A DNA stretch of 37,034 nt from a bacterium (GTDB lineage Archaea > Nanobdellota > Nanobdellia > SCGC-AAA011-G17 > GW2011-AR17). The position numbers and the translations under genes were made by a program. Below are positions 2,891 to 34,554 of the stretch, piece after piece. The stretch is taken from the NCBI GenBank assembly GCA_030697685.1, contig JAUYPF010000028.1, positions 1 to 37,034 of the forward strand. The letters are read 5' to 3'. The first letter of the stretch is position 1, and the number at the start of each line of letters is the position of its first letter. A model generated the notes under the pieces. It saw only the letters and a list, made by a program, of their open reading frames with translations. It made no database searches and had not been told where the DNA came from.

Positions 2891-3041
2891 ATTTTTGTAA
2901 TATCTTTATTGTATATAAAACTTCATGGGGATGTATAAATAGTCTTTTTTTTATTTTTGTCATATGAAAAGTATTATGATAGAATGAAAAAGAGATTTTA
3001 GGAAAAATTCTCCTATATAAGCTTTTTCTCGTTAGACAAAC

Positions 3042-3068
3042 GGCATGGGGCGCGCAGAACTTATAAAG
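3042..3068 (+). promoter_or_regulatory. GC-rich element plus TATA box of the BRO gene
   Basis: GGCATGGGGCGCGC at 3042-3055 is strikingly GC-rich in this AT-rich context and is followed by a TATA box, CTTATAAAG, at 3060-3068. A similar block, GGCATGTGGTGCGCGC, lies directly before the TATA box of tnpB at 33115-33130. The BRO gene then has a leader of about 30 nt with an AGGAGA ribosome binding site before the ATG at 3121, unlike the leaderless neighbours. Confidence 0.5.
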
Positions 3069-3120
3069 AGTCTTTCTTTTGTTTACAATTGCTTTTGAAC
3101 CCGTGTGACAGGAGAAAAAA

Positions 3121-3975
3121 ATGCAAGAAAACAAAAATGCTTTAGTAGTCTTTCAAGACAAAAAAATACGACGCACATGGCATAACAATGAGTGGTACTT
3201 CTCTGTTGTAGATGTAGTTGGTGCTTTGGCAGAAAGTGATAATCCGCGAAATTATTGGAATATGCTTAAAGTAAGGGAACTAGAGCATGGAATTGAGCTG
3301 TACACAAATTGTGTACAACTGAAATTACTCTCAACAGATGGAAAACACTATTTTACAGACTGTGCAAACACTAAGGGAATGTTTAGGATAATACAATCTA
3401 TCCCCTCAAAGAATGCAGAACCTTTCAAACTTTGGTTAGCAGAAGTTGGATATGAAAGAATACAGGAAATAGAAAACCCTGAGCTTGCTCAAAGTCGTAT
3501 GAAAGAACTCTATAGGGCAAAAGGTTATTCTGATGAATGGATAGAGAAAAGAGTAAGGGGAATTGCAGTACGAGATGAATTGACAGATGAGTGGAAAAAA
3601 AGAGGAGTTGATGAAAATAAAAATTTTGCAATTCTCACTGCTGAAATTTCTCAGGCCACTTTTGGAATGACTCCAAGTGAATATCAAAAATTTAAAGGGC
3701 TTAAAAAAGAGAATCTTAGAGATCATATGAATGATTTGGAGCTCATTTTTTAGATGCTTGGAGAAAGAGTCACTACAGAAATTACTCGAAAGGATCATGC
3801 TGAAGGTTTTGATGCATGTGAAGATGCTGCAAAAAGAGGTAGAAGAGTAGCAGGTAATGCAAGAAAGGAAACGGAAAAAGAGATTGGGAAGCCTATTACT
3901 TCCAGTGAAAATTATCTTGACACACCTGAAAAAGAAAAAAGAAAGCACATAGTGGGAAAGAAGAAAGATGTTTAG
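3121..3975 (+). pseudogene. BRO-family phage antirepressor gene with in-frame TAG
   Basis: Residues 1-110 form a BRO-N domain (RRTWHNNEWYFSVVDVVGAL, later FRIIQSIPSKNAEPFKLWLA), followed by the conserved middle region ERIQEIENPELA. The second half has AEISQATFGMTPSEYQKFKGL and LRDHMNDLELIF. At 3751-3753 the frame meets TAG and continues in the same frame with MLGERVTTEITR and GRRVAGNARKE, which is the normal C-terminus of the family. The TAG therefore replaces one codon inside the usual LELIF-x-MLGE stretch; without it the protein would be 284 residues. Because the TAG is directly followed by ATG, reinitiation could yield a separate 73-residue C-terminal piece. TAG is used as an ordinary stop elsewhere (the IMPDH and Kae1 genes), so read-through is not expected. 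A nonsense mutation or an assembly error is the simplest reading. Confidence 0.85.
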
Positions 3976-4056: not shown

Positions 4057-6840
4057 ATGCAAATTCGCTCTGGTCTTACATATAATGATGTGCTTCTTGT
4101 TCCAAAGAGAACGCCTTTAAACTCTCGAAGTGAAGCTGATTTACATACACAGTTTACGAAGAATATTTCTCTTAACATTCCTCTTGTTAGCTCAAATATG
4201 GCTTCTGTAACAGAACATAAGATGGCAATAGCTATGGCACGAAATGGGGGTCTTGGAGTTATACACCAATTTGGAACGATTGAAGAACAAGTAGAAGAAG
4301 TGAAAAAAGTGAAAAAGAGTACGAGTTATGTGATTGAGCATCCTCTTACTGTGCAAGACCATATTACTCTTGGGCAAGCAATTGACATCATGAAAAGTGA
4401 AAGTGTGACGAGTCTTCTGGTGTTGCGAGGCGATGAACTTGTAGGTATATTTACTTCTCGAGATTATCTTTTTGAAAGTAATTGGGGAAAAAGAATTTCT
4501 GATGTGATGACTCCACGAGAGAAACTTATTACTGCTTCTTATGGGATAAGTCTTGATGAGGCAAAAGAACTTCTGCATAGACATAGGATTGAGAAGTTGC
4601 CCTTGTTACAGCATGGTCGATTATTAGGCCTTATTACTACAAAGGATATTATGAAAATTGAAACGTGGCCGCAAGCAAATCGAGATAGTAAAGGAAGATT
4701 ACGTGTGGGTGCTGCTGTGGGAGTGAAGGATACGCTTGTACGTGCGGAAGCTTTGATTGCTGCTGGTGTTGATGTTTTGATTTTAGATATTGCGCATGCA
4801 CATTCTGATCTTGTCATTCAAAGAGTGAAGGAGTTGAAACAAAATTTTTCTATTGATGTGATGGTGGGAAATATTGCTACTGCTGATGCTGCAAAAGATC
4901 TTATTGAAGCTGGAGCTGATGGGTTGAAGGTGGGAATTGGGCCCAGTGGTGTATGTCTTGAAGGAGATACTCCTATTTTAATGAGTGATTATACTGTTAA
5001 AAAAATTAAAGATATTGAAGTTGGAGATCAAGTTATAACACATATGGGGAGGATAAGAAAAGTTATTACAAGCTATAAAAGACTTTATTCTGGGAAATTT
5101 ATCTCTCTTAAAGTGAGAGGGTGTCCAGGAAGGCTAGTAATGACTCAGGAGCACCTTGTACTTGCAACACTTTTTCAAGCTGATCCTAAGAAAATTGCAA
5201 AATATGGTCCCAAATATTATTTTTCTAAAACAAAACATAATCAAGGATTAATATGGGCTAAAGCAAACCAGGTCAAGAAATTTGATGTTATGGTTTTATC
5301 TAAAGTTGCCTGTGAAAAAGAGATACGAACTTTATTTGATTTGGCAGAGTTATTTCCTGAATATGCTTTCGATTCTCAAAAAATATGGTCTCAGAAAATT
5401 GGATTTAATCCTAATGATGAATCTTATACTAACCTTGCAGAACGTTTTGAAACGACACCAAGAATTATAGGAAATATCGTACATGGTGGAAAATCAATGA
5501 ATATGATTTTAAACTATGAAGTAAATTCTTATTTAGAAACTACTGATTATCAGAGAGAAATGGTACCTGTTAAGATTAATAGGCTTATAGAATTAAATGA
5601 GGATTTAGCTCTTCTTATGGGCTATTATTTAGCAGAAGGTTCTATTGGTGGGTATCAAAATAATTGGCATGTAGGTTTTGATTTCCATATACATGAGACT
5701 TTTTATCATGATGATGTAAAGAAATTAGTAGAAAAAATATTTGGTTACTCAGGTACAGGGTTTATTTATGATAAAGAAAATAATAGTGCAAACGTCTCTG
5801 TTTATAATAACCTCATTGCAAAATTTATTAAAAAGCTTGTACCAGGAACTGCCCTTACAAAGATAATTCCAGAATGTGTTATATATGCAGATGAAAAAGT
5901 CTTGAAGAATATTCTGATTGGAATGATACGAGGTGATGGTACAATCAAAGACTATAGAAGGGTTAAGTATAAATCCTCTTCTATATCCCTTGCATTTCAA
6001 GTTTCATACCTTCTTGAGAGGTTGGGGTATTTCTCAACTATTACAAAAGCAAAACCCTCTAAAAAAAGTATAAATCCTAGTTATATAGTAAATATCTCTG
6101 GGAAACAGTATGAAAAGTTTTCTTTAGATTTCCATGAATTAAATATTAATGTTAGACCTGTGGCTATATCTAAACAACAAATCTGGGATGATGAACATTA
6201 TACCTATCTTGCTGTGGAGGATGTACAAGAATTGGATACAGAAATGGATGTTTATAATATTGAAGTTGAGGATGATAATTCCTATATTGCTAATAGGGTG
6301 GTAACTCACAATTGCACCACAAGAATTATTTCTGGGTCTGGTGTTCCTCAATTAACAGCAGTGATGGATGTGTGTTCTGCTGCAAAATTGTATGGTGTGC
6401 CTGTATGTGCTGATGGTGGAATGAAATATCCTGGTGATGTGTCAAAGGCTCTTGCTGCTGGCGCTTCAAGTATTTTTTCTGGAAGTTTCTTTTCTGGAAC
6501 GGATGAAGCACCGGGAATGATTATTATGAAAGATGGGAAGAGATACAAAAGGTATATGGGAAGTGCTTCTTATGATAGTAATCATGAACGAAAGGAAAGT
6601 CAAGAAGGGAAAAAAGTGAAAGAGAAATTAGATGTCTTTGTGGAAGGTGTTGCAACACTTGTTGATTATAAAGGACCAGTTGAAGAAGTGATTAAAGCAA
6701 TTATTAAGGGTGTGCAGAGTGGCTTTAGCTATTGTGGTGCACGAACGATTGCGGAGATGCAAGAGAAAGCAGAATTTATTCAAATCACTGCAAGTGCTTG
6801 GGAAGAAAGTCTTTCGCGTGGGACGAAGTTGAGTGATTAG
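4057..6840 (+). CDS. guaB: IMP dehydrogenase/GMP reductase family enzyme, intein-containing precursor
   Basis: The 927-residue precursor comprises 474 host residues and a 453-residue intein. The host enzyme interconverts IMP with XMP (dehydrogenase) or GMP (reductase) in guanine nucleotide metabolism. Residues 1-90 start the barrel, two CBS domains follow at about 95-205, the barrel resumes with RLRVGAAVG, and the catalytic loop reads GIGPSGV, intein, CTTRIISGSG. The +1 residue after the intein, precursor Cys753, is the catalytic cysteine. The C-terminal part has ADGGMKYPGDVSKAL and the flap-region sequence EGVATLVDYKG. In IMP dehydrogenases the position before VxYKG is often a catalytic arginine; here it is leucine, so a GMP reductase or altered activity should be considered. 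A TATA-like CTTTTTAAA lies about 26 bp before the ATG, implying a leaderless message. Confidence 0.9.
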   Translation: MQIRSGLTYNDVLLVPKRTPLNSRSEADLHTQFTKNISLNIPLVSSNMASVTEHKMAIAMARNGGLGVIHQFGTIEEQVEEVKKVKKSTSYVIEHPLTVQDHITLGQAIDIMKSESVTSLLVLRGDELVGIFTSRDYLFESNWGKRISDVMTPREKLITASYGISLDEAKELLHRHRIEKLPLLQHGRLLGLITTKDIMKIETWPQANRDSKGRLRVGAAVGVKDTLVRAEALIAAGVDVLILDIAHAHSDLVIQRVKELKQNFSIDVMVGNIATADAAKDLIEAGADGLKVGIGPSGVCLEGDTPILMSDYTVKKIKDIEVGDQVITHMGRIRKVITSYKRLYSGKFISLKVRGCPGRLVMTQEHLVLATLFQADPKKIAKYGPKYYFSKTKHNQGLIWAKANQVKKFDVMVLSKVACEKEIRTLFDLAELFPEYAFDSQKIWSQKIGFNPNDESYTNLAERFETTPRIIGNIVHGGKSMNMILNYEVNSYLETTDYQREMVPVKINRLIELNEDLALLMGYYLAEGSIGGYQNNWHVGFDFHIHETFYHDDVKKLVEKIFGYSGTGFIYDKENNSANVSVYNNLIAKFIKKLVPGTALTKIIPECVIYADEKVLKNILIGMIRGDGTIKDYRRVKYKSSSISLAFQVSYLLERLGYFSTITKAKPSKKSINPSYIVNISGKQYEKFSLDFHELNINVRPVAISKQQIWDDEHYTYLAVEDVQELDTEMDVYNIEVEDDNSYIANRVVTHNCTTRIISGSGVPQLTAVMDVCSAAKLYGVPVCADGGMKYPGDVSKALAAGASSIFSGSFFSGTDEAPGMIIMKDGKRYKRYMGSASYDSNHERKESQEGKKVKEKLDVFVEGVATLVDYKGPVEEVIKAIIKGVQSGFSYCGARTIAEMQEKAEFIQITASAWEESLSRGTKLSD
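4954..6312 (+). mobile_element. Intein with LAGLIDADG homing endonuclease in the guaB-like gene
   Basis: The intein spans precursor residues 300-752. Block A begins with Cys300 (CLEGDTPILM). Block B has the TxxH motif as TQEH at about 5144-5155. The central part has two LAGLIDADG-type helices, LLMGYYLAEGS (about 5611-5643) and ILIGMIRGDGT (about 5911-5943). The C-terminal block reads VYNIEVEDDNSYIA and ends VVTHN, followed by the +1 Cys. All residues needed for standard splicing are present, and the endonuclease motifs keep their acidic residues (AEG, GDG), so it may be active in both functions. No splicing-related damage is seen. Confidence 0.95.
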
Positions 6841-32219: not shown

Positions 32220-32948
32220 TTATACAGAAATTCCTTTTTTTCTTAAAGTTTCAATTTCTTCAAATGTGAGTAATCTTAATGGTTCTTCATTTCCTGCATT
32301 CATTTCATCAATAGCGTATTGTAATCGCCTATCAAGATTTTCAGTAGCAATAAACTTCGCAGCTATAACTCCTTTTACTTTCTGATCATATACTAAGTCA
32401 AACTTTGTCAATGTTTCTAATACCTCTAGATTCATTACAGTAAGCAATTCTCTTTCTGTAATCCATTCAGGTGCTCTTTGAGATTGTCTATAATCTGCAA
32501 TAACACCTCCAGTAAATTTTACAACTTCTAATCTAGGCCTCTGCTGCTTATAATATGTAACATGCCCAAATTCCTGTGCTTGCCTTTCTAATCCTAATAA
32601 CTTTATTCTTTTTCGAATTTCTTCCCTAGTCCCTGTTCGTGAAGGTTTAAATGGCCCTTGATCCCAATTATAAAATACAGAATCATCAAACACAGAAACA
32701 CAAGCAACTTTCTCTTTTCCAAGAAATCGCATAAATTTGTTTAAAGCTTCTTGTTCAGGTTTATAGCTTGAATCACTATGCACAACAACAAGATACTTTT
32801 CTTGATCTCTTTCTAAAGAAATAAATCTTCTTATCTCTGCATCATTATATCCAAAGACCTTATTTGGTGAAATCGAAGAAAAAGTTCCTCTACTACGCAA
32901 TTCTTCTACTAAGTATTCTTTAATAGCTTCCCTTTCCCTAAGCCCCAT
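32220..32948 (-). CDS. Hypothetical protein (242 aa)
   Basis: Not recognised. The ATG at 32948 (MGLREREAIKEYLVEEL) is preferred: an ATAAATAAC box is centred 24 bp before it, which fits a leaderless message. An open frame continues upstream to 33119, but its extra 57 residues would be encoded by the hairpin-rich end of the adjacent tnpB element and have unlike composition. The protein shows LERDQEKYLVVVHSDSSYKP, a strand-rich CVSVFDDSVFYNWDQGPFKP, a basic helix EEIRKRIKLLGLERQAQEFG and the C-terminal LRLLTFEEIETLRKKG. No signal or membrane segment. The VVVHSD strand may belong to a nucleotide or metal-binding fold, which is speculation. Confidence 0.55.
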   Translation of the reverse strand: MGLREREAIKEYLVEELRSRGTFSSISPNKVFGYNDAEIRRFISLERDQEKYLVVVHSDSSYKPEQEALNKFMRFLGKEKVACVSVFDDSVFYNWDQGPFKPSRTGTREEIRKRIKLLGLERQAQEFGHVTYYKQQRPRLEVVKFTGGVIADYRQSQRAPEWITERELLTVMNLEVLETLTKFDLVYDQKVKGVIAAKFIATENLDRRLQYAIDEMNAGNEEPLRLLTFEEIETLRKKGISV

Positions 32949-32996
32949 AGGTAAATAAAAGTTTAAGTTATTTATTTCCTTTTGGGTAAAATACCT

Positions 32997-33078
32997 CGCA
33001 GCTTGCTGCGATAGTTTTTCATAGTGAAGCTTTGGACAATGCTTGGACAAAATTATTTTGTCACTACAAGCCTTGTAG
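32997..33078. repeat. Three perfect hairpins in the left part of the tnpB element
   Basis: Within 82 bases lie three perfect inverted repeats: CGCAGC-TT-GCTGCG (32997-33010), GACAAAAT-T-ATTTTGTC (33046-33062) and CTACAAG-C-CTTGTAG (33064-33078). The direct repeat TTGGACAA also occurs twice at about 33032-33051. The first hairpin matches the right-end hairpin; the other two have no counterpart there. The density suggests a structured DNA or RNA region, such as a transposon end or a regulatory RNA upstream of tnpB. Confidence 0.65.
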
Positions 33079-33114
33079 CCATTGAATTTGACCTCATGGA
33101 CAGTCGGACATGTT

Positions 33115-33144
33115 GGCATGTGGTGCGCGCCAGGCTTATAAATA
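33115..33144 (+). promoter_or_regulatory. tnpB promoter with GC-rich element
   Basis: GGCATGTGGTGCGCGC (33115-33130) precedes a TATA box CTTATAAATA (33135-33144), which lies 26 bp before the tnpB ATG, giving a leaderless message. The GC-rich block resembles the one before the BRO gene TATA box at 3042-3055. Confidence 0.55.
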
Positions 33145-33165
33145 CTTTTTGCTTATCTTTATTTT

Positions 33166-34287
33166 ATGCAACGCACTGTGAGTTTGGTCTTGGAGAAAAA
33201 TAAGGATTTGTATGCTTTGATTATTTTATATAATCGTATTGCGAATGTGCATATCCAGTATTGCTTAGAAAATCAAACTCTTTCTAAGAATGATTTGCAT
33301 CATTTGCTTTACAAAGAAATAAGAAAAAAATATCCAAAGTTTCCTAGTGCATTGATTCAATGTGCACGCGATCATGCAGTAGAAATGTTGAAAGGGAATA
33401 AGATGAATGTTCAAACAAAAAAGCGTTTGGATTCTTCGATTCGCTTTGATAGGAGAACGATGAAGGTATTTTTAGAGTCTGGGACTTTGCAACTCACGAC
33501 TCATGTTGGAAGAAATAAATACCCAGTAAAAGTTCCTGTACATTTCCAGAAATATTTTTCTTGGGAAGTGAAGTCATTGAACCTTGGAATCAATAAAAAA
33601 CATTGTCTCGTGAAGGTTGTTGTTGAGGGCAAAGTTCCTGAGCAAAGCAGATGCAGTGAAGTCCTTGGTATTGATTTGGGATTGAGAAATTTTGCTGCAC
33701 TCAGTGATGGACAAATTATCCCTAGTAAAGAAATCAATCGTGTAAAAAGAAAATATGCTCATCTGAGAAAAGAACTCCAGTCAAAAGGCACTCGTGCTGC
33801 AAAGCAAAAGTTACAGGCTTTAGCAGGACGAGAAAGACGGTTTATGAGCGGCTGGAATCATAACTTGACAAAGTATCTTGCATCGCTTCCTTATGGAGCA
33901 TTTGCAGTGGAAGATTTGAAAGGCATTCGTAGTGGAAGAAAAGGAAAAGTGTTCAACAGAAGGAGAAGCAACTGGGCATATGCACAGTTCCGAAGTTATC
34001 TGCAATACAAAGCAGAAGAACAAGGAAAATTTGTTCTGTTAATCGACCCAAAATACACTTCCCAGCAATGCAAAAACTGTTTGTACATTGCAAAAGAAAA
34101 CAGAAAAGGAAAAATCTTTCATTGTCAAAAATGCAACTACATCTCAGATGCAGACACTAACGCAAGCAAAAACATCTCTCGAAGAGGATCAAAAATCTTC
34201 TTTGAGCAGGCTGTTGTAAACCAGCCATATATCTCAAACTATGAGGCATTGCTTCGTTTAGAGAAAATACATATATCTGCAGCGTAA
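33166..34287 (+). CDS. tnpB: TnpB, RNA-guided nuclease of an IS605-type element
   Basis: TnpB proteins are RNA-guided DNA endonucleases encoded by IS200/IS605 transposons and are ancestral to Cas12. The 373-residue protein has an intact RuvC-like centre: Asp170 in LGIDLGLRNFA, Glu249 in FAVEDLKGIR and Asp330 in SDADTNASKNI. The zinc finger is CKNC and CQKC (Cys302, 305, 320, 323). The basic region KGKVFNRRRSNWAYAQFRSY is typical. Nothing is truncated, so it is likely active. The end of the gene overlaps the right-end structure at 34276-34323, where the guide RNA scaffold is expected by analogy with known systems. Confidence 0.93.
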   Translation: MQRTVSLVLEKNKDLYALIILYNRIANVHIQYCLENQTLSKNDLHHLLYKEIRKKYPKFPSALIQCARDHAVEMLKGNKMNVQTKKRLDSSIRFDRRTMKVFLESGTLQLTTHVGRNKYPVKVPVHFQKYFSWEVKSLNLGINKKHCLVKVVVEGKVPEQSRCSEVLGIDLGLRNFAALSDGQIIPSKEINRVKRKYAHLRKELQSKGTRAAKQKLQALAGRERRFMSGWNHNLTKYLASLPYGAFAVEDLKGIRSGRKGKVFNRRRSNWAYAQFRSYLQYKAEEQGKFVLLIDPKYTSQQCKNCLYIAKENRKGKIFHCQKCNYISDADTNASKNISRRGSKIFFEQAVVNQPYISNYEALLRLEKIHISAA

Positions 34288-34323
34288 TGCCCCACAGCTT
34301 GCTGTGATGTGGATAGCTGCAGA
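34276..34323 (+). ncRNA. Right-end nested hairpin, probable 3' part of the TnpB guide RNA
   Basis: An outer 8-bp stem TCTGCAGC (34276-34283) pairs with GCTGCAGA (34316-34323) and encloses the inner hairpin CACAGC-TT-GCTGTG (34293-34306). The outer left arm overlaps the last codons of tnpB, whose TAA is at 34285-34287. In characterised TnpB systems the guide RNA scaffold covers the 3' end of tnpB and the right end, with the guide taken from flanking DNA. If so, the guide would begin close to 34324 and further. That assignment is by analogy. Confidence 0.5.
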
Positions 34324-34356
34324 GAAAAATGTAGGTTTACAAGGAGTTATGTGATA

Positions 34357-34554
34357 TTATTCTTCTTCGTCTTCTTCCTCATCCTCTTCATCATTATTAG
34401 CTTCGAGTTCTTCCCATAAAGCTTCTTCTGCTTCTTCAAATTCTTCTTCGCTAATAATCCCTTTTTTGATAAGAAGATCAATGAGTGCATCAATCTTATT
34501 ATATGCTGCAACAGCAATCTCTTCTGTGTCTAAATCTTCATGTTTATGTTCCAT
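34357..34554 (-). CDS. Small acidic protein (65 aa)
   Basis: Not recognised. The ATG at 34554 (MEHKHEDLDTEEIAVAAYNK) is supported by GGAGG seven bases upstream; a TTG seven codons earlier has no such site. The protein has a helical middle (KIDALIDLLIKKGIISEEEF) that may form a helix-turn-helix-like or coiled pair, and a tail of nearly continuous Asp/Glu. It lies 28 bases after the aminotransferase on the same strand and may be co-transcribed. The acidic tail could bind a basic partner. Function unknown. Confidence 0.68.
   Translation of the reverse strand: MEHKHEDLDTEEIAVAAYNKIDALIDLLIKKGIISEEEFEEAEEALWEELEANNDEEDEEEDEEE

What the first reader, a model, noticed from the sequence alone, without database searches (positions are those of the whole stretch)
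32990..34325. tnpB-only element with matching end hairpins and a nested right-end structure
Left CGCAGCTTGCTGCG and right CACAGCTTGCTGTG keep pairing through compensating changes, which is good evidence that the hairpins matter. The right end adds an outer 8-bp stem overlapping the tnpB stop, where a guide RNA scaffold is expected. The RuvC residues are intact. The left end holds two further perfect hairpins without right-end partners, possibly a separate structured RNA or a binding site. Flanking sequence after 34323 would be the guide.
Basis: partly seen in the sequence, partly recalled or inferred. Interest (0 to 1): 0.58.

Follow-up and report, generated by a model that had tools for sequence, protein, structure and literature searches.

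The report
TnpB element on a repair-gene promoter
This is an ordinary small mobile element with an RNA-guided DNA-cutting enzyme in a tiny archaeon, but its gene is driven by a promoter sequence shared with many other selfish DNA-cutting genes and with the host's own DNA-repair genes, which hints that selfish genes have plugged into an undescribed repair switch.

Summary
The element is real: a tnpB-only IS200/IS605-type insertion in a DPANN archaeal MAG. It splits two genes that are adjacent in 6 of 6 congeners. TnpB has an intact RuvC triad and dN/dS of 0.11-0.24 in nine pairwise comparisons. The right-end structure is a conserved guide-RNA scaffold with three nested helices. It ends at 34340 (...GTTTAC), not 34324, so the guide starts at 34341. 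The left-end hairpin recurs in several relatives; three copies in one congener have lost it. The two extra left-end hairpins do not hold up: they fall inside a ~115-bp promoter module and their pairing is not conserved.

That module is the surprise. The same motif (GGACA repeats, GGCA, GCGCG, TATA box) occurs at 15 sites in this 1.07-Mb genome and in 45 of 103 genomes of the order. Downstream lie LAGLIDADG and HNH-like endonucleases, several unrelated TnpBs, BRO/KilA-N proteins, DNA methylases, and host Hef, Lhr and Hjc repair genes. Hef promoters carry it in 10 of 17 genomes, with variants in 5. Selfish genes carry their own host lineage's version (44 of 46).

Best reading: a standard TnpB element under a host, probably repair-linked, regulon. 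The element is shown; regulation by DNA damage is inferred.

The parts
32984..34340 (+). tnpB-only IS200/IS605-type element (left edge +/- about 2 nt)
   Evidence: right edge from copies in G002, G001, G029, G056 that share sequence to GTTTAC and then diverge; left edge from alignment with G002 (AGGGTAAAATACC after TTTAC), G003 and G056; genes on either side adjacent in 6 of 6 congeners
32997..33010 (+). left-end hairpin CGCAGCTTGCTGCG, preceded by AATACC
   Evidence: direct; similar ATACCC-hairpin in G002, G029 (two copies), G056 and others; absent or degenerate in three G001 copies
   Evidence: aligns with upstream regions of HEG, TnpB, Bro-N, 89-aa and 148-aa genes elsewhere in the genome
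33097..33144 (+). core promoter motif TGGACA..CGGACA..TTGGCA..GGTGCGCGCCAG-TATA (TTATAAAT 33136-33143)
   Evidence: 15 sites in G000, 45 of 103 genomes; strict pattern found once in the window against 0 in 100 shuffles
33166..34287 (+). tnpB, 373 aa, RuvC D170/E249/D330, zinc ribbon CKNC(302)/CQKC(320); start about 25 nt after the TATA box, so probably leaderless
   Evidence: dN/dS 0.11-0.24
   Evidence: MFE fold of window, G002, G056, G058 and one G001 right end
34276..34323 (+). omega-RNA helix 2, arms 34276-34283 / 34316-34323
   Evidence: anchored arm pairing in five elements
34293..34306 (+). omega-RNA helix 3 / right-end hairpin CACAGCTTGCTGTG, preceded by AATGCCC
   Evidence: direct; folds in relatives
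34336..34340 (+). element terminus TTTAC (right cleavage-site-like pentamer; same letters as the left-flank pentamer in G002 and G003)
34341..34356 (+). predicted native guide (first 16 nt of the right flank)
   Evidence: inference from the boundary plus the ISDra2 rule (about 16 nt from the flank, PMC8612924 passage)

Best explanation
A tnpB-only IS200/IS605-type element. Transcription starts at a TATA promoter just before tnpB. The 3' part of the transcript folds into a three-helix omega-RNA that ends at 34340 and continues into the flank as guide, so that TnpB would cut the element-free site and favour retention of the element by recombinational repair. Movement needs a TnpA in trans. The tnpB promoter is not private: it is a copy of a cis-element that the host lineage uses for the repair genes Hef, Lhr and Hjc and that many unrelated selfish endonuclease genes also carry. 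The most likely mechanism is that a host regulator, probably an activator because the site lies just upstream of the TATA box, switches these genes together when DNA is broken or forks stall, so that selfish nucleases act when recombinational repair is available. Shown here: anatomy, covariation, constraint, insertion, and the shared motif with its gene list. Inferred: RNA-guided cutting, the need for TnpA in trans, the regulator, and induction by DNA damage.
For: TnpB families; copies at different sites in three congeners; genes adjacent in 6 of 6 congeners but split here; purifying selection; omega-RNA folds (z of -2.4 or lower in 7 of 9 right ends) and anchored stem pairing. Shared motif: 15 sites in G000, best E 7e-13; reversed-pattern control 0 in G000; downstream gene classes; Hef promoters taken by protein search carry it in 10 of 17, variants in 5, none in 2; selfish sites match their own lineage's host-gene site in 44 of 46, 0 of 2000 label shuffles as extreme; ORF start 13-25 nt past the motif model's end in 60 of 95.
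Against: The motif is absent from several TnpB relatives: nhmmer E < 0.1 in 10 of 25 upstream regions, and not in G078, the next closest element outside the genus. At least one free-standing LAGLIDADG gene (C11) lacks it and sits after a tRNA. No regulator is identified. Some regulon genes have no evident repair role. The window's left flank is CTTTT, not TTTAC. Three G001 copies lack a clear left end and one lacks the inner right hairpin, so not all copies are mobile.
Confidence: 0.75

Rival explanations
1. The shared motif is a constitutive strong promoter, for example an unusual upstream/BRE element read by the general factors or a TFB paralogue, with no link to damage. Selfish genes use it because it expresses well.
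For: It sits directly against a TATA box at leaderless distance, and several genes without a known repair role carry it.
Against: Only 15 sites in a 1.07-Mb genome and 2 in the 37-kb window. The identifiable host genes are Hef, Lhr and Hjc rather than highly expressed housekeeping genes. Repeated GGACA units and lineage-specific versions look like a dedicated factor's site.
Confidence: 0.3
2. The motif spread as DNA: selfish genes captured or copied one promoter cassette by recombination, and similarity reflects common descent rather than shared regulation.
For: About 115 bp are alignable between many sites in G000, including bases outside the repeats. One strong copy lies before a C5 methylase in another family (G044) similar to the G003 one.
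Against: Hef promoters across seven genera keep the motif or a variant while the surrounding sequence differs, so it is maintained as a site in host genes too.
Confidence: 0.15
3. The two additional left-end hairpins are a separate structured RNA or an extended transposase recognition site of the element.
For: Both stems are perfect in the window; z = -2.1 for the 41-nt stretch.
Against: The same sequence block precedes non-transposon genes, and the pairing is broken there and in the G002 copy. The whole region folds at z = -0.5. No Rfam match.
Confidence: 0.04
4. The element is a domesticated, immobile TnpB used as an RNA-guided regulator rather than a nuclease.
For: No TnpA in the element; the only TnpA gene found in the genome belongs to another element with different ends; some relatives lack left ends.
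Against: The RuvC triad is intact, and copies lie at different sites in G000, G002 and G003.
Confidence: 0.06

Closest known systems
IS200/IS605 tnpB-only (IS1341-type) elements with reRNA/omega-RNA, ISDra2 TnpB as reference (PMC8612924, passages read)
   Same: TnpB with RuvC D/E/D and zinc ribbon; right-end scaffold RNA overlapping the 3' end of tnpB; guide from the right flank; end hairpins
   Different: No tnpA; probable flank motif TTTAC rather than TTGAT (and not present at this copy); tnpB expressed from a promoter shared with host repair genes
Haloarchaeal sotRNA/omega-RNA of IS200/IS605 elements (Rfam RF02656, RF02657; PMC12558985, passages read)
   Same: Archaeal omega-RNA in the 3' part of tnpB
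   Different: No match to these families at gathering score in the window, at E up to 10 in 34100-34450, or at gathering score in six relatives
SOS/LexA control of integron integrases (PMC3108266, abstract read)
   Same: A mobile-element DNA enzyme under the host's damage-response operator, with the operator kept by the mobile gene
   Different: Bacterial LexA box; here a different motif, an archaeal TATA promoter, an unidentified factor, and many unrelated selfish nuclease families
Orc1-2 DNA damage response element ANTTTC of Sulfolobales (PMC9738581, passages read)
   Same: Archaeal damage regulon with a short promoter motif
   Different: A different, longer motif (GGACA repeats, GGCA, GCGCG) and a different phylum; no Orc1-2 link tested
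Irradiation-triggered transposition of ISDra2 (PMC2806898, start of abstract in search listing)
   Same: Couples an IS200/IS605 element to DNA damage
   Different: There it is transposition of the element; here only a shared tnpB promoter is seen and no induction was measured

Membership tests
IS200/IS605 TnpB element | TnpB family protein (OrfB_IS605 + TNB domains) | tested here: met
   Pfam above cut-offs; NCBIfam guided_TnpB 151 bits against cut-off 100
IS200/IS605 TnpB element | Intact RuvC catalytic D/E/D | tested here: met
   D170, E249, D330; motif positions assigned from recalled TnpB alignments
IS200/IS605 TnpB element | Subterminal hairpins at both ends | tested here: met
   both in the window; recur in G002, G029, G056; lost at the left end of three G001 copies
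IS200/IS605 TnpB element | Right-end scaffold RNA with conserved structure | tested here: met
   no transcript data
IS200/IS605 TnpB element | Insertion 3' of a fixed short flank motif (TAM) | tested here: inconclusive
   TTTAC flank in G002 and G003, TTTAT in G056, CTTTT in the window, neither in the two G029 copies
IS200/IS605 TnpB element | Y1 transposase TnpA in the element (autonomous members only) | tested here: not met
   tnpB-only; the single PF01797 hit of the genome is at C48, in an element with different ends
IS200/IS605 TnpB element | RNA-guided DNA cleavage | not testable with these tools
   needs biochemistry
Haloarchaeal sotRNA (RF02656/RF02657) | Match to the Rfam covariance models | tested here: not met
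DNA-damage regulon | Shared cis-motif before repair genes | tested here: met
   Hef 10 of 17 plus variants in 5; Lhr and Hjc sites
DNA-damage regulon | Induction by DNA damage and a defined regulator | not testable with these tools
   no expression data; a 148-aa regulon protein gave no PDB match with E below 0.18

The most novel reading that the evidence does not exclude
DPANN archaea of this order have an undescribed DNA-repair regulon (cis-element GGACA-n-GGACA-n-GGCA-n-GCGCG next to the TATA box; core targets Hef, Lhr, Hjc, and conserved 89-aa and 148-aa proteins). Unrelated selfish nucleases, namely LAGLIDADG and HNH homing endonucleases, several TnpB families and BRO/KilA-N genes, have independently adopted its operator and track its lineage-specific sequence, so that DNA cutting by selfish genes is timed to the host's recombinational repair.
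Probability: 0.45. Interest if true: 0.82.

Novelty: new variant of a known kind. Interest (0 to 1): 0.56.

Why it matters
How TnpB and homing endonucleases are expressed in their hosts is poorly known, and I know of no described damage-response regulon in DPANN archaea (recalled; four paper searches aimed at this, listed none). A single cis-element before repair genes and before many unrelated selfish nucleases makes a clear, testable idea: selfish nucleases tie their expression to the state in which cuts are repaired by copying, which is what homing and TnpB-mediated retention need. The corrected scaffold end (34340) also fixes the guide for anyone testing this TnpB.

Tried and rejected
Separate structured RNA at the left end: rejected.

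Element-specific promoter: my first idea after one search was an operator peculiar to DPANN tnpB elements. The pattern search in the genus and the downstream genes showed that it is genome-wide.

Mobilisation by the resident TnpA (C48): its element's ends do not resemble these. The two G002 TnpA loci that I printed upstream of the gene show no similar left end by eye.

Exact empty site by alignment: the gap between the two flanking genes is 0-25 bp and unalignable in congeners, so adjacency is shown but not the exact junction. For the G029 copy, joining the flanks appears to restore a reading frame; I worked that out by reading, not by a tool call, and make no claim on it.

Viral carriage of the motif: the strict pattern gave 0 hits. 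One 19-mer hit lies inside a coding region of a phage contig with no motif by nhmmer: chance.

Solved structures for the 89-aa and 148-aa regulon proteins: nothing with E below 0.09.

MAFFT alignment of right ends (A6) shifts the outer stem by one column, so I counted anchored arms instead of using count of structure pairs.

Limits: the motif model was built from sites in this genus selected by a pattern that fixes GACA, GCG and TTATAAA, so those letters are not independent support; GGCA and the second GGACA are. One search listed only part of its matches. I analysed 111 distinct sites (nhmmer E up to 0.3) from the loci held; 93 proteins went to family scans. HNH and some LAGLIDADG labels (C45, C2, C21) rest on my reading of the sequence, as Pfam found no such domain there. 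Hef promoter calls were made by eye. The host-gene and selfish-gene lists were picked by me from the sites (16 and 46 of the 111).

Full report
Setting. The window is contig C55 of a 1.07-Mb genome in 65 contigs, 92% complete. Close relatives of its TnpB lie in MAG records named Nanoarchaeota UBA10136 and Candidatus Woesearchaeota NC_groundwater_1850, so this is a DPANN archaeon. Handles: G001-G006 are congeners; others are of the same family or order.

The element. The ORF 33166-34287 is a TnpB of 373 aa: Pfam OrfB_IS605 and Cas12f1-like_TNB above cut-off, NCBIfam guided_TnpB, catalytic D170/E249/D330 and two zinc-ribbon CxxC pairs. It is the only close copy in its genome; the other hit (32% over 178 aa) belongs to a tnpA-tnpB element at C48. 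In the relatives search, 14 of 60 genomes have a match at E below 1e-20, the own genome counted. Congeners G002 (87%), G003 (76%) and G001 (63-69%, four pieces) hold the nearest. Pairwise dN/dS among window, G002, G003, G001 and G078 copies is 0.11-0.24 in the nine of ten pairs that could be computed, so the protein is under purifying selection.

Insertion. On the minus strand the window has an aminotransferase, a 65-aa acidic ORF, the element, an ORF without Pfam match (32220-32954), a hydrolase-like ORF and an arginase-like ORF. In all six congeners the acidic ORF and the next ORF lie next to each other on one contig; in the four whose sequence I compared they overlap or are at most about 25 bp apart. 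The element therefore entered a compact gene pair. The gap itself cannot be aligned, so the exact junction is not proved. The copies in G002 and G003 lie in other surroundings, and the G002 left flank has no good match in the other six genomes of the genus.

Ends. The window and G002 copies agree to ...AAAATGTAGGTTTAC and then differ; copies in G001, G029 and G056 also end in GTTTAC, and more distant ones in GTTAC. At the left, G002 reads TTTAC|AGGGTAAAATACCCC, G003 TTTAC|TGGGTCAGCTACCC, G056 TTTAT|GGGTCTGATACCCC and the window CTTTT|GGGTAAAATACC. So a TTTAC-type flank is likely for the family but is not present at this copy, and the two G029 copies do not show it either. The left hairpin follows ATACC(CC); the right hairpin follows AATGCCCC. 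In recalled IS608 biology the letters before each hairpin pair with the cleavage sites; equal cleavage letters and near-equal guide letters at both ends would fit that. Three G001 copies lack a clear left hairpin.

Guide-RNA scaffold. Of nine right ends folded, seven fold better than shuffles at z of -2.4 or lower: window -3.7, G002 -4.7, two G001 copies -4.3 and -2.9, G056 -2.9, G058 -2.4, L062 -2.4. Two do not: G029 (0.0) and L064 (-0.6). Window, G002, G056 and G058 show three nested helices; one G001 copy keeps an outer helix without the inner hairpin. With arms anchored on GTAATGCCCC (or its close forms) and GGATA, the outer stem pairs 8/8 (window), 8/8 (G002, same letters), 8/8 (G056, different letters), 7/8 (G029) and 6/8 (G058); arms crossed between differing sequences give 2-6. 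No Rfam family matches, including the haloarchaeal sotRNA families named in PMC12558985 (passages). By the ISDra2 rule (PMC8612924, passages) the guide would be the first ~16 nt after 34340.

The extra left hairpins. GACAAAATTATTTTGTC (33046-33062) and CTACAAGCCTTGTAG (33064-33078) are perfect in the window. They are not kept in the G002 copy. In the same genome the same block, as ACAAAATTATTTTGCCACTACAAGGCTTATATCC and the like, precedes other genes without the pairing. They are part of a promoter.

The shared promoter. Upstream of the tnpB TATA box is TGGACA-gt-CGGACA-tgt-TGGCA-...-GGTGCGCGCCAG. A loose pattern gave 18 raw hits in G000 against 0 for the reversed pattern, and hits in 6 of 7 genomes of the genus. 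A sequence-only model from 29 sites found 15 sites in G000 (best E 7e-13) and matches at E up to 0.05 in 45 of 103 genomes of the order; in the window only 33096 and 3024. In G000 most sites extend into a ~115-bp bipartite module with further TTGGACA units. The ORF start lies 13-25 nt past the motif model's end in 60 of 95 sites with an ORF of 80 aa or more, which fits leaderless archaeal promoters.

What it drives. The 15 G000 sites precede, by Pfam, two TnpBs (window; C13), three LAGLIDADG genes (C27, C37, C48), three Bro-N genes (C4, C64, window 3121) and a Hef-type helicase (C8); by my reading one further LAGLIDADG-like (C21) and two HNH-like genes (C45, C2) without Pfam support; and ORFs of 43, 89 and 148 aa of unknown function. 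Among 93 downstream proteins from all genomes: LAGLIDADG_3 in 24, guided_TnpB in 11, Bro-N in 8, KilA-N in 2, C5 DNA methylase in 2, DEAD helicases in 8 (five with the Hef-type helical domain, the rest Lhr-like by reading), Hjc resolvase in 2. The 89-aa protein recurs behind the motif in 11 genomes.

A test not started from the motif. I looked up Hef orthologues by protein: 17 of 18 family genomes have one. Upstream, the motif is plain in 10 of 17 (all seven genomes of the genus, plus G007, G010, G012), a variant stands at the same place in 5 (G016, G017, G013, G008, G011), and nothing similar is seen in 2 (G015, G009) (judged by eye). Six of the ten were also motif-model hits listed; four were not listed there.

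Lineage matching. The motif differs between lineages (for example GTGACATGGCATTTGCGCGCAG in G010, GGACACGACAAACTTGCGCGCC in G065). For 46 selfish-gene sites and 16 host-gene sites in four lineages, the nearest host site is of the same lineage in 44 of 46; mean within-lineage similarity 0.60 against 0.56, with 0 of 2000 label shuffles as large. The G029 host site is a small unknown gene, and the genus contributes most sites, so this is supporting, not decisive.

Counter-evidence. Of 25 TnpB upstream regions only 10 have the motif at E below 0.1, and G078, 58% identical, does not. Of five short-frame LAGLIDADG genes found by Pfam in G000, three have it, one (C11) follows a tRNA without it and one is cut by a contig end; the other Pfam hits lie in long frames, probably inteins. 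No regulator is identified and no expression data exist.

Interpretation. The element is an ordinary TnpB element. Its promoter is the finding: a cis-element of the host lineage, kept before Hef and other repair genes and carried by many unrelated selfish DNA enzymes. Its position just upstream of the TATA box suggests an activator. By analogy with LexA control of integron integrases (PMC3108266, abstract) and irradiation-triggered ISDra2 transposition (PMC2806898, search listing), the likeliest sense is timing to DNA repair. The known archaeal damage element ANTTTC (PMC9738581, passages) is different. Searches listed no paper on such a motif; I read only the items named.

Noticed in passing
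window 3002-3750: A second copy of the shared promoter motif drives a Bro-N (BRO family) gene at 3121-3753 in the same window.
   Followed up: yes
window 4057-6840: IMP dehydrogenase-like ORF of 927 aa that appears to be interrupted by an intein with a LAGLIDADG domain (PF14528 hit at 5905-6120).
   Followed up: no
L140, L143, L154, L138, L173, L117, L119, L129, L130, L133, L125: A conserved ~90-aa protein (SGN.E..IW.NE ... NLRKQD pattern) of unknown family follows the motif in 11 genomes; the G000 copy has no Pfam match and the profile no convincing PDB match. Possibly the core member of the regulon.
   Followed up: partly
L141:309-752, L147, L156, L111: A 148-aa protein with the motif upstream, 73-86% identical between genomes, looks winged-helix-like to me (reading only); a candidate regulator.
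   Followed up: partly
L081, L114, L132, L184: Small ORFs (about 45-93 aa) ending in a shared ...IFS.QL..LP.E-like pattern follow the motif in four genomes; possible microprotein family.
   Followed up: no
L107 (G044) and L066 (G003): Similar C5 DNA methylases in two families of the order, both behind the motif (a strong genus-type copy in G044); suggests transfer of gene plus promoter.
   Followed up: no
G000:C48:53539-55152 (L002, L032): A separate tnpA-tnpB IS605 element in the same genome with different ends and no shared promoter motif seen upstream.
   Followed up: partly
L127, L170, L171 (G004): Motif hits that lie about 150 bp from contig ends, alike where printed, as if a repeated element broke the assembly there.
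   Followed up: no
L005, L016, L020, L021 (G001): Several TnpB pieces in one congener; two stop at the same residue (199) at contig ends, the left ends look eroded and one copy lacks the inner right hairpin.
   Followed up: partly
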